In this document: in pieces, positions 9,958 through 24,563 of the stretch
How positions within the stretch are numbered: the stretch's first letter is position 1
Layout of the letters: each line of letters starts with the position of its first letter
Assembly: GCA_031275325.1 (NCBI GenBank)
Contig: JAISOX010000069.1
Location: 1 to 35,808, forward strand
Length of the DNA: 35,808 bases
DNA from: Treponema sp.
GTDB taxonomy: Bacteria > Spirochaetota > Spirochaetia > Treponematales > Breznakiellaceae
Direction: 5' to 3'
Program-made: the position numbers and the translations under genes
The notes under the pieces: generated by a model
What the model saw: only the letters and a program-made list of their open reading frames with translations
What the model was told of the DNA's origin: nothing
Databases searched by the model: none

Positions 9958-10307
9958 GTCTTTTGGGAGCCCCTCATTGTCTTTTGGGAGCCCCTCCCGG
10001 TCTTTTGTAACCCCCTTATTTGTCTTTTATGAGTCCTTCATTGTCTTTTGGGAGCCGCTCCCGGTCTTTTGTAAACCCCTTATTGTCTTTTGGGAGCCGC
10101 TTATTGTCTTTTGTGAATCCCTCATTGTCTTTTGGGAGCCGCTTATTGTCTTTTGGGAGCCCCTCATTGTCTTTTGGGAGCCGCTTATTTGTCTTTTAAG
10201 AGCCCTTCATTGTCTTTTGGGAGCCGCCCATTGTCTTTTGGGAGCCGCTCATTGTCTTTTGGGAGCCGCCCATTGTCTTTTGGGAGCCGCTCCCGGTCTT
10301 TTGCGGA
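9958..10307. repeat. 21-bp tandem minisatellite, about 16.5 copies
   Basis: Each unit starts GTCTTTTGGGAGCC and ends in a variable 7-nt part (CTCATT, CTTATT, CTCCCG or CCCATT type). I count 16 units plus a partial one. Fourteen full units are exactly 21 bp, and the third and eleventh have an extra T (22 bp). Variant cores (TGTAA-, TGTGAA-, ATGAGT-, AAGAGC-containing) alternate with the main type, which implies block duplications. The period keeps a heptapeptide frame (on plus, LIVFWEP-like), but the 22-bp units break it and no start signal exists, so the array is best treated as non-coding. It lies 3' of the secreted TIM-barrel-like gene and upstream of the CsgG/barrel promoter. Confidence 0.95.
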
Positions 10308-21869: not shown

Positions 21870-21906
21870 GGGGGCGTTTCAAAACTTCACGGCTTGAAAC
21901 GCCCCC
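21870..21906 (-). terminator. Terminator-like hairpin between the FGDGDPN gene and flgF
   Basis: A perfect 13-bp stem (21870-21882 with 21894-21906, 11-nt loop) is followed on the minus strand by a U-rich stretch (TATTCTATTT). It probably ends the upstream operon and insulates the flgF promoter, which begins about 10 bp later. Confidence 0.65.
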
Positions 21907-22048: not shown

Positions 22049-23569
22049 CTAGGCGTTGCTGTCGAAGACCGTACTCCCCAGGGAAGACGCCTCCGGGTTT
22101 ATAGAAGCCCGGTATGTGCGCAGGGCTTGTTTTTCCCGTTCCAGTTCAGGGAAGGTATAGACCGGGTTTCCGCCCGTATCCAGGCCCACCTCAGGAATCG
22201 AATAGGAACCCATCTCCTTGATCACCTGGTTTTGGGCCGCGCTCAGGTTTTTGGGCTGGCATTCGGGCCTATCCGCGTTGAGGTCCTGCAGGGTAATCCC
22301 CTGGGGCTTTGACCACATAGCGTTGTACCCGATCTTTCTCAGGTTCTCCTGTTTAATGGTCTCGTTCTCTTGTTTCGTTAAAAAGTACCGCAGGCTGGGA
22401 ATGAACCAAAACAACAGGGAAAAGATAAGGGGAACCACCCCTAAGCCCACTAAGATGAGCGGAAGGGGATTATCCACCACGACCTGGGATAAGGCATAGG
22501 TGATTTTATACAGATATGAAGCGGCCTTGAACTGCTCCGGCGTGGTAATGGGGCCGGTGCTCAGGGCGTTGAACAGGAAATACCCGCCGAAGATCAGGTT
22601 CACCCCATTGATGAGGCTGAACCACAGGTTCATCTTCTTGGGGTTGGAGGAAAACTGCTTGAGCCGTTTTAAGGGGGAAGAACCGCCAAAAGAACGATCC
22701 CGTCGATCCGCACGCAGCAGGAGGTCGTCGAAGCGGTATACCAGGGTTCCTTCTTCCGTAACTTCTGGAAGCCCGCCGAATTCCACGCAGCACGCGCTCA
22801 ACCCTTGCTCGGCTTCCGTTGGGGTGGAGCCGGTGAGGACCATGTATTCCGGGAGGGAGATGACCCCTTGGTTGGCCTGAATATAGGCGATGACCCCCTG
22901 CTTTTCTTTCGCGGTCCAATCCCCATTAGGATCCCCGTCGCCGAAGACAAACGAGAAGATCGCCTTGTATAGGGGCTTGCCTTTAGGCCGGGAGTTCCTG
23001 CCGGTATAGTACCGGCCGTTAAAGGAACGGTCCACTGCTTTGGTCAATTCCGAGTAAAACCAGATCCGGATGATGAGGTCAAAGATGCTTCCCGCGAGGA
23101 ACAAGCCTCCGCCTCCGCGGCCTTCCGAGCGGTTATCCGAACTGGAGGAGTTCGACACCACTGAAACCGCCAAGGCAGCCAAGGCGATGAGCATGAAAAG
23201 GGCAAAGTACCCGACCAGCATCACCATGATCCATACCTTAAACGCCAGGGCCCCCGCGATTTTTATCCCCTCCAGGGCCTTGGAGGTGAATCTCCGCAGG
23301 CCCGCGCGGAAACCCCGGTATTTACTGGTAAACCCCTGAGGAAAGGAATAGAGGATTTCCCCGGATTCGGTTACTTCAAGGCGTCCTGAATACTCATCCG
23401 CTGCAACCGGGACCAGTTCCCGGATCTTGTTCAGGGGTAAGGCCGTTTGAGCCGCTATATCCGCGACGGTGGCGCCTTTCCGCTGCTTTTTGAACGCGTC
23501 GGTGATCTTCCGGTATGCGGCTTTGTCTTTTATGGAGCAAGAGAAAGCGGTTTTATTGGTAAATCCCAT
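22049..23569 (-). CDS. Polytopic membrane protein with repeated winged-helix domains and FGDGDPN motif
   Basis: This 506-residue protein has three similar soluble domains of about 60 residues (17-77, 221-281 and 405-475). Each reads like a winged-helix domain ending in a 'VTEeGxLVYxF' wing (LEVTESGEILYSFP, PEVTEEGTLVYRF, VGLDTGGNPVYTFP). They alternate with hydrophobic helices near 108-138, 155-175, 313-336 and 367-392. Before the second domain is SFVFGDGDPNGDW. From memory an FGDGDPN motif occurs in a plastid/cyanobacterial family annotated as related to iron-sulfur cluster biogenesis (At5g03900-like). GAGGAG precedes the ATG. It lies 36 nt downstream of an IscR-like regulator in one operon, which fits an iron-sulfur or redox role. 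Direct function is unknown. Confidence 0.7.
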   Translation of the reverse strand: MGFTNKTAFSCSIKDKAAYRKITDAFKKQRKGATVADIAAQTALPLNKIRELVPVAADEYSGRLEVTESGEILYSFPQGFTSKYRGFRAGLRRFTSKALEGIKIAGALAFKVWIMVMLVGYFALFMLIALAALAVSVVSNSSSSDNRSEGRGGGGLFLAGSIFDLIIRIWFYSELTKAVDRSFNGRYYTGRNSRPKGKPLYKAIFSFVFGDGDPNGDWTAKEKQGVIAYIQANQGVISLPEYMVLTGSTPTEAEQGLSACCVEFGGLPEVTEEGTLVYRFDDLLLRADRRDRSFGGSSPLKRLKQFSSNPKKMNLWFSLINGVNLIFGGYFLFNALSTGPITTPEQFKAASYLYKITYALSQVVVDNPLPLILVGLGVVPLIFSLLFWFIPSLRYFLTKQENETIKQENLRKIGYNAMWSKPQGITLQDLNADRPECQPKNLSAAQNQVIKEMGSYSIPEVGLDTGGNPVYTFPELEREKQALRTYRASINPEASSLGSTVFDSNA

Positions 23570-23605
23570 GGATAGTACTCCTCTATAATTGACATGAGGG
23601 ACCCT

Positions 23606-24118
23606 TCAGCATCCAGACCCCTGGATGTTAAAAGAACGCTCTTGGGCCGCTCCCTGGTCCGCCCCATCCTGTTCCCGGCCAGGATGGTCCGGTTCGGCCT
23701 GTTCCGGCAGGGTATTTTTTTCAAGAATCGACGCCAAGGTAACATTCTTAAAAAAATCATTCACCAGACTGGTTACATCGGTCCACACCTCATGGCTGAG
23801 ACAGGCTCCGATCCGGTCGCAGGTTTCCTGGCGCTTGTCGCAGGAGATACTCTCCAGCTCTTCTCCTGCCGCGTCCAGAATCGCCTTGATCGTGAGCTTA
23901 TCCAGGGGTTGGGCAAAATAAAAGCCCCCCCCGGGTCCCCGGACGGATGAAACAATCCCCGCCTTGCGGAGCTTAAAAAAAATCTGTTCCAAAAACACCG
24001 ATGAGATATGCTCCTGTTCCGATAAGTGATTGATGGAAACCGGGGCGCCGTCTTTTCCCATTTTTGCCAGCGCCAAGGATGCCCGCAGCGCATACCGGCC
24101 CCGTGTGGTGATCCGCAT
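23606..24118 (-). CDS. Rrf2-family regulator, IscR-like with Fe-S ligand cysteines
   Basis: The 170-residue protein starts at the ATG at 24118, where MRITTRGRYALRA is the usual Rrf2 N-terminus and AAGGGGG lies upstream. It has an N-terminal winged helix (QEHISSVFLEQIFFKLRKAG, then SVRGPGGGFYFA). Cys93, Cys100, Cys106 and His109 follow in the spacing C-x6-C-x5-C-x2-H, nearly the C92/C98/C104/H107 set that holds the [2Fe-2S] cluster of E. coli IscR. An acidic, Gln-rich tail (about 140-170) ending in Cys is unusual. It likely senses iron-sulfur status, nitric oxide or oxidants and controls its own operon. No isc or suf genes are adjacent. Confidence 0.88.
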   Translation of the reverse strand: MRITTRGRYALRASLALAKMGKDGAPVSINHLSEQEHISSVFLEQIFFKLRKAGIVSSVRGPGGGFYFAQPLDKLTIKAILDAAGEELESISCDKRQETCDRIGACLSHEVWTDVTSLVNDFFKNVTLASILEKNTLPEQAEPDHPGREQDGADQGAAQERSFNIQGSGC

Positions 24119-24199: not shown

Positions 24200-24228
24200 A
24201 CTATAGGGTATTTTGCGGCAAATGAAAA
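24200..24228 (-). promoter_or_regulatory. Sigma-70-type promoter of the Rrf2 operon
   Basis: On the minus strand TTTTCA (24223-24228) and TATAGT (24200-24205) are 17 bp apart. The -10 is near consensus and the -35 is moderate. The predicted start near 24193 gives a 75-nt leader. Confidence 0.5.
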
Positions 24229-24337
24229 GACCGTCCCCGGAGCGGCTGCCCCAGGAGCGCTTTCCCGCGGCGCGGCTCCATCACCGCATCAACCGCCCGG
24301 ACAGCCCCGTGCGGTCAGGGCGGATCCATGCTGGAAA
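24229..24337. other. GC-rich spacer before the second minisatellite
   Basis: This is non-coding by appearance. The frame open through it on the plus strand continues through the array into the barrel gene, but it lacks a proper start codon and ribosome binding site. Confidence 0.45.
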
Positions 24338-24563
24338 GAAAATGGATCATGCTCAACAGAAAACGATCCATTCTCAATAGAAAATGGATCATGCTCAACA
24401 GAAAATGGATCATGCTCAATTGAAAATGGATCATTCTCAACAGAAAATGGATCATTCTCAATTGAAAATGGATCATTCTCGATAGGAAATGGATCATTCT
24501 CAATAGGAAATGGATCATTCTCAATTGAAAATGGATCATGCTCAACAGAAAATGATCCGTTCT
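24338..24563. repeat. 21-bp tandem minisatellite, about 10.8 copies
   Basis: Units run GAAAATGGATCATGCTCA plus a 3-nt end (ACA, ATT or ATA). Ten units are exactly 21 bp and an eleventh is partial. Internal variation is limited to a few positions: GCTC/TTCT, the last 3 nt, and GGAAAT or GAAAAC starts. A GATC is in every unit. All frames but one or two are free of stops, giving ENGSFSI/ENDPFSI heptapeptides on either strand. No start signal supports translation. The array ends 144 bp upstream of the -35 box of the barrel gene, so it is not in that transcript. Confidence 0.95.

What the first reader, a model, noticed from the sequence alone, without database searches (positions are those of the whole stretch)
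22049..24118. IscR-like regulator paired with a multi-winged-helix membrane protein carrying FGDGDPN
The Rrf2 protein keeps the ligand pattern C-x6-C-x5-C-x2-H. The coupled gene encodes a membrane protein with three similar winged-helix-like domains and the FGDGDPN motif, which I recall from a plastid/cyanobacterial family linked by annotation to Fe-S biogenesis. Together they may be an uncharacterised membrane system for Fe-S or redox stress.
Basis: partly seen in the sequence, partly recalled or inferred. Interest (0 to 1): 0.7.

Follow-up and report, generated by a model that had tools for sequence, protein, structure and literature searches.

The report
Redox-type regulator with membrane winged-helix protein
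In termite-gut Treponema, a gene for an iron-sulfur-type (Rrf2) regulator sits in a conserved two-gene unit with a membrane protein of a cyanobacterial family of unknown function; the pairing is real, but nothing found here ties the membrane protein to iron-sulfur assembly.

Summary
23606-24118 (-) encodes a 170-aa Rrf2 regulator with C93-x6-C-x5-C-x2-H109. 36 bp downstream, 22049-23569 (-) encodes a 506-aa membrane protein with FGDGDPN. The recalled cyanobacterial link is correct: profile-profile comparison with the cyanobacterial FGDG(D/N)PN family gives 100% probability, E 1.6e-50, over 377 columns. Two winged helices are clearly duplicated (E 1e-14); the third is partial and missing from the cyanobacterial model. 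The pair is conserved (18 of 21 loci) but only in the window's own GTDB family. Outside it, 0 of 16 spirochaete homologues have the regulator next door: glgA is the upstream neighbour in two other families (12 of 12), and an OPT transporter in Melainabacteria-type genomes. The membrane protein has no conserved Cys, and its winged helices are mostly acidic. In related families the isc operon has a different Rrf2 of its own. I read it as a regulator-controlled operon for a membrane-anchored winged-helix scaffold, probably protein-binding. The Fe-S/redox part rests on the regulator alone. The Arabidopsis relative could not be tested; a 2013 proteome paper says its function remains to be explored.

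The parts
23606..24118 (-). Rrf2-family regulator, 170 aa, first gene of the unit
   Evidence: Pfam Rrf2 105 bits (cut-off 30); best NCBIfam hit IscR, below cut-off
23792..23842 (-). C93-x6-C100-x5-C106-x2-H109 putative Fe-S cluster ligands
   Evidence: three Cys conserved in all 25 orthologues read, His in 21
24200..24228 (-). predicted promoter TTTTCA-N17-TATAGT whose -10 overlaps the conserved box ATAGTCA
   Evidence: consensus scan; box upstream of 7 of 8 rrf2 genes of the window group and 6 of 17 outside it versus 4 of 153 control genes, motif chosen after looking
22049..23569 (-). FGDGDPN membrane protein, 506 aa, second gene, 36 bp after rrf2
   Evidence: ORF; homologues across Spirochaetes and Cyanobacteriota
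23342..23533 (-). winged helix 1 (residues 13-76)
   Evidence: AlphaFold model; VIA Z 9.3, rmsd 1.9 over 65 residues to the Zur wHTH
23156..23254 (-). predicted membrane helix 1, FKxWIxxMLVGYF signature (residues about 106-138)
   Evidence: invariant columns, model helix 87-141
23045..23107 (-). hydrophobic helix 2 (residues about 155-175), low confidence
   Evidence: model pLDDT about 50-67
22925..22945 (-). FGDGDPN motif (residues 209-215)
   Evidence: sequence; GDG(D/N)PN also in 42 of 45 full-length cyanobacterial homologues found by profile rather than by motif
22730..22918 (-). winged helix 2 (residues 218-280), duplicate of winged helix 1
   Evidence: hhalign 98.3%, E 1e-14
22556..22639 (-). 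predicted membrane helix 3 (residues 311-338)
   Evidence: model
22376..22465 (-). predicted membrane helix 4 (residues about 369-398 of helix 369-420)
   Evidence: model
22151..22291 (-). partial winged helix 3 (residues 427-473), spirochaete form
   Evidence: model, hhalign wing match; not present in the cyanobacterial model

Best explanation
A two-gene operon of the termite-gut Treponema family. Gene 1 is an Rrf2 repressor of the Fe-S-cluster-binding type. Gene 2 is a member of an old, uncharacterised membrane-protein family shared with Cyanobacteriota. Proposed working: cluster-loaded Rrf2 binds near the -10 region of its own promoter and keeps the operon low; loss or oxidation of the cluster (O2, NO, iron shortage) lifts repression. 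The induced protein sits in the inner membrane with its winged helices in the cytoplasm, where they bind protein partners rather than DNA, acting as a membrane scaffold or adaptor. Shown by computation: gene pair, family homology, domain plan, mostly acidic winged helices, conserved Cys ligands. Inferred: co-transcription, autoregulation, cluster sensing, scaffold role. The coupling to Rrf2 is a wiring peculiar to this lineage, not the family's defining function.
For: Adjacent and co-directional in 18 of 21 loci of the window's GTDB family, 11-126 bp between tblastn match ends, down to 51% identity of gene 2. Three Cys conserved. The Rrf2 winged helix is basic (+6, pI 10.2), while winged helices 1 and 2 of gene 2 have median pI 6.8 and 4.6 in spirochaetes (4.6 and 4.6 in cyanobacteria), their recognition helices pI 4.4 and 4.3, and the TM1 flank is +7, i.e. 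positive-inside. Homology to the cyanobacterial family: hhalign 100%, E 1.6e-50. Conserved promoter-overlapping box upstream of rrf2. Neighbours change between lineages.
Against: No experiment. The promoter box was chosen after inspection. Three FGDGDPN-positive genomes of the same family lack the Rrf2 orthologue and one has Rrf2 without FGDGDPN, so neither strictly needs the other. A protein-binding role for the winged helices is an inference from charge; some winged helices of such pI could still bind DNA.
Confidence: 0.55

Rival explanations
1. One reading: a membrane system for Fe-S cluster assembly or Fe-S/redox stress, with the membrane protein acting directly in that pathway.
For: Rrf2 partner with cluster ligands; annotation of the Arabidopsis relative as 'Iron-sulfur cluster biosynthesis family protein' in a chloroplast envelope list (PMC3565376).
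Against: No conserved Cys or His; no Fe-S Pfam family among the shown matches for 53 members; neighbours elsewhere are glgA, OPT, SpoIID-domain genes, not isc/suf; the isc loci of the window's family that were read (11) have no FGDGDPN gene or Rrf2 beside them. PMC3565376 itself says the function of these envelope proteins remains to be explored.
Confidence: 0.1
2. The membrane protein serves storage-polysaccharide or carbon metabolism (glycogen/starch), and Rrf2 ties it to redox state in the termite treponemes.
For: glgA directly upstream and co-directional, gap 51-185 bp, in 12 of 12 loci of families f4 and f5; divergent glgA beside it in one cyanobacterium, L148; a plastid relative would sit where starch is made (inference).
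Against: Not beside glgA in any f1, f2, f8 or f9 locus examined; f3 genomes keep glgA without the membrane protein; Melainabacteria-type genomes pair it with an OPT transporter.
Confidence: 0.15
3. The adjacency is only inherited synteny: Rrf2 regulates distant genes and the membrane protein is a passenger.
For: Rrf2 orthologues in f4/f5 lie beside rex-like and pyrF-like genes without this partner; G012 keeps Rrf2 beside the dinG-like gene with the membrane gene gone.
Against: The pair survives rearrangement of both flanks (flagellar genes, dinG-like gene or others downstream) with short intergenic gaps.
Confidence: 0.2

Closest known systems
Cyanobacterial FGDG(D/N)PN membrane protein family (unnamed here; no Pfam or NCBIfam model reached its cut-off)
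   Same: Same order winged helix 1 - membrane helix - FxFGDGxPN - winged helix 2 - two membrane helices; hhalign E 1.6e-50
   Different: Spirochaete form is about 70 aa longer, with a partial third winged helix and a C-terminal GxxxFD end; about 20-25% identity
Arabidopsis At5g03900, chloroplast inner-envelope protein annotated 'Iron-sulfur cluster biosynthesis family protein'
   Same: Recalled motif and membrane location; the paper lists 2 alpha-helical membrane helices and unexplored function (PMC3565376)
   Different: Sequence not available here, so homology untested; the Fe-S label has no support in the bacterial relatives
IscR ([2Fe-2S] Rrf2 regulator, three Cys and one His; PMC11138216)
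   Same: Rrf2 family, three Cys plus His in the window protein
   Different: Below the IscR equivalog cut-off; one residue more between Cys 1 and 2 than in E. coli IscR (from memory); His replaced in four relatives; not next to isc genes
Small cyanobacterial membrane proteins ending in a similar winged helix
   Same: Weak profile matches to winged helix 1 next to hydrophobic helices
   Different: Single winged helix, no FGDGDPN

Membership tests
Rrf2 superfamily | Pfam PF02082 above gathering score | tested here: met
   105.3 bits vs 30
IscR | NCBIfam IscR equivalog cut-off | tested here: not met
   131.6 bits vs 207.55
IscR | three Cys and one His ligands | tested here: met
   present in the window; His not kept in L014, L018, L020, L153
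IscR | gene linked to isc/suf genes | tested here: not met
   linked to the FGDGDPN gene in f1, to rex/pyrF-like genes in f4/f5; a different Rrf2 accompanies iscU in f4/f5
IscR | binds a [2Fe-2S] cluster | not testable with these tools
   needs purified protein
Cyanobacterial FGDG(D/N)PN family | full-length profile similarity | tested here: met
   hhalign 100%, E 1.6e-50, 377 columns
Cyanobacterial FGDG(D/N)PN family | motif and two winged helices around membrane helices | tested here: met
Plant At5g03900 family | sequence homology | not testable with these tools
   no plant sequence held; only literature mention
Fe-S assembly proteins | conserved Cys ligands | tested here: not met
   best Cys column 40% in spirochaetes, 28% overall
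Fe-S assembly proteins | match to an Fe-S biogenesis Pfam model | tested here: inconclusive
   none for the window protein; none among the 25 shown of 59 families matched by 53 members

The most novel reading that the evidence does not exclude
The FGDGDPN proteins are a previously unnamed family of membrane-tethered, protein-binding winged-helix scaffolds running from Cyanobacteriota (and possibly plastids) to free-living and termite-gut spirochaetes. In the termite treponemes one has been placed under an Fe-S-sensing Rrf2, so membrane-scaffold dose follows the redox or Fe-S state of the cell.
Probability: 0.3. Interest if true: 0.65.

Novelty: new variant of a known kind. Interest (0 to 1): 0.42.

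Why it matters
A plastid-envelope protein annotated as Fe-S biosynthesis has had no explored function. Placing spirochaetes and Melainabacteria-type genomes in the (bacterial) family shows that it is not tied to photosynthesis. The lack of conserved Cys argues that the Fe-S label should not be carried over to the bacterial members. The glgA, OPT and Rrf2 pairings give concrete, testable partners.

Tried and rejected
Pfam/NCBIfam for gene 2: nothing above cut-off. PDB sequence search with both profiles: only weak hits, best E 0.008 over the last membrane helix and beyond to an ATP synthase b-delta subunit, read as helix/coiled-coil noise. Foldseek on PDB: no match at E 0.001; VIA gave generic winged helices for residues 7-85 only, so the other parts are barely tested. 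Plasmid collection: none. Weak second matches in G030 and G032: the G030 one is a spurious hit in a transporter-like ORF, the G032 one was not read. L118 rejected as a uracil-DNA glycosylase. isc operons of the window's family read for an Rrf2 neighbour or the ATAGTCA box: none convincing. Horizontal transfer between cyanobacteria and spirochaetes: tree shows two clean groups, unrooted, so direction cannot be told. Literature for the motif: none in the held library.

Full report
Setting. The window is contig C88 of a 2.15-Mb, 66%-complete genome. Two members of its genus have contigs of the same lengths as public 'Treponema sp.' MAG records (G009:C85 = 15147 bases as JAIRLU010000272.1; G007:C169 = 27255 as JAISBK010000201.1); that these MAGs are from termite guts is my recollection of the isolate names. 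Complete genomes G192 and G276 have the lengths I remember for T. primitia ZAS-2 and T. azotonutricium ZAS-9 (memory, not tested).

The observation. Gene 1 (23606-24118, -) is an Rrf2 regulator. Gene 2 (22049-23569, -) starts 36 bp after gene 1 stops, with a GAGGAG ribosome-binding-site-like run upstream. C93-x6-C100-x5-C106-x2-H109 is as described. In 25 orthologues the three Cys never vary; the His is F or Y in four. A fourth ligand that differs between Rrf2 types is known (IscR uses His; RisR's fourth ligand is unknown; PMC11138216).

Gene 2 is a member of a real, wide family. 28 of 40 relatives and 28 of 295 genomes drawn evenly from the phylum carry it; it is absent from the f3 genomes listed. 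A motif scan of the species-genome collection gave Cyanobacteriota, Melainabacteria-type genomes and spirochaetes. Because that set is selected by the motif, I repeated the search with a profile over 244 Cyanobacteriota genomes: 92 have a match, about 89 of them full-length. Of 45 full-length genes read, 42 carry GDG(D/N)PN and three close variants (GEGNPN, GDGYPN, GCGNPN). In spirochaetes outside the window's family only FxFxFG is invariant (FGDPDP, FGVEEA, FGTSDV occur). Spirochaete and cyanobacterial profiles align at 100% probability, E 1.6e-50. The tree separates the two groups cleanly (100/100) but has no root.

Architecture. The spirochaete model (pLDDT 82.4, pTM 0.76) reads winged helix 1, long membrane helix, second hydrophobic helix, FGDGDPN, winged helix 2, two membrane helices, partial winged helix 3. 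The cyanobacterial model (pLDDT 79.4) has the same plan with a disordered linker in place of the second hydrophobic helix, and ends in helices without a wing. Winged helices 1 and 2 are duplicates (E 1e-14). Their recognition helices are acidic in spirochaetes (pI 4.4, 4.3) while the neighbouring Rrf2 winged helix is basic; the flank before membrane helix 1 is strongly positive. Hence my reading: winged helices on the cytoplasmic side, probably protein-binding. Similar lone winged helices occur at the ends of small cyanobacterial membrane proteins.

Neighbourhood. In the window's family f1, 18 of 21 loci have Rrf2 directly upstream on the same strand; outside f1, 0 of 16. Families f4 and f5 have glycogen synthase glgA directly upstream, 12 of 12 loci. 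Most Melainabacteria/Obscuribacterales loci have an OPT transporter upstream (six with gaps of 12-84 bp, a seventh 1.9 kb away). Cyanobacteria show no constant co-directional neighbour; the commonest is a convergent SpoIID-domain gene (34 loci), and a CAAD-domain gene precedes it in some. So the partner changes by lineage, and none of the recurrent partners annotated here is an Fe-S assembly gene.

The regulator. Its orthologues in f4/f5 (40-54% identical) mostly lie beside rex-like and pyrF-like genes, not beside gene 2. Those genomes carry a second Rrf2 (24-31% identical to the window's) about 1.6 kb from iscU, the better candidate for an isc regulator. In f1 the iscS-iscU loci read (11) have no adjacent Rrf2, so gene 1 could have taken over isc control there; I found no shared promoter box to support it. 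SufB/D is missing from most f1 genomes. The other two Rrf2 genes of the window genome sit by a PLP-enzyme gene that reads like cystathionine synthase/lyase, a CymR-like setting. In G012 Rrf2 faces the dinG-like gene with gene 2 missing between them, so the pair can be broken.

Promoter. A sigma-70-like promoter TTTTCA-17-TATAGT lies at 24228-24200. Its -10 region overlaps ATAGTCA, found upstream of 7 of 8 rrf2 genes of the window's close group and 6 of 17 outside, versus 4 of 153 control genes (Fisher p 7e-5, post hoc, relatedness not corrected). It may be a repressor site or merely a shared -10.

Verdict. The homology claim stands for cyanobacteria and is untested for plants. The Fe-S function does not follow: the only Fe-S evidence is the regulator's own ligands, and the gene pair is a local wiring of one bacterial family. 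The likeliest working is redox or Fe-S-status control of a membrane scaffold protein.

Noticed in passing
window 24337-24554 and 9958-10303: Two intergenic tandem arrays of 21-bp units (10 and 16 copies) with unrelated unit sequences.
   Followed up: no
L040 541-700: A further array of roughly 22-bp units (TAACCTACGGGTTAGA...) in the same genome, near the CymR-like Rrf2 pair.
   Followed up: no
window 21873-21903: Hairpin GGGGGCGTTTCAA/TTGAAACGCCCCC downstream of gene 2; similar pieces are seen upstream of rrf2 in L007 and the window.
   Followed up: partly
L167-L175, L181, L185, L186: glgA and the FGDGDPN gene form a conserved co-directional pair in two other spirochaete families.
   Followed up: partly
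L053, L068, L077, L078, L098, L131: OPT-family transporter gene 12-84 bp upstream of the FGDGDPN gene in Melainabacteria-type genomes.
   Followed up: partly
L322-L326: Small cyanobacterial membrane proteins ending in a winged helix similar to winged helix 1; no family name sought.
   Followed up: partly
L038: Divergent second copy of the family in G028, 27% identical, with the motif degraded to FGGARDPEA.
   Followed up: no
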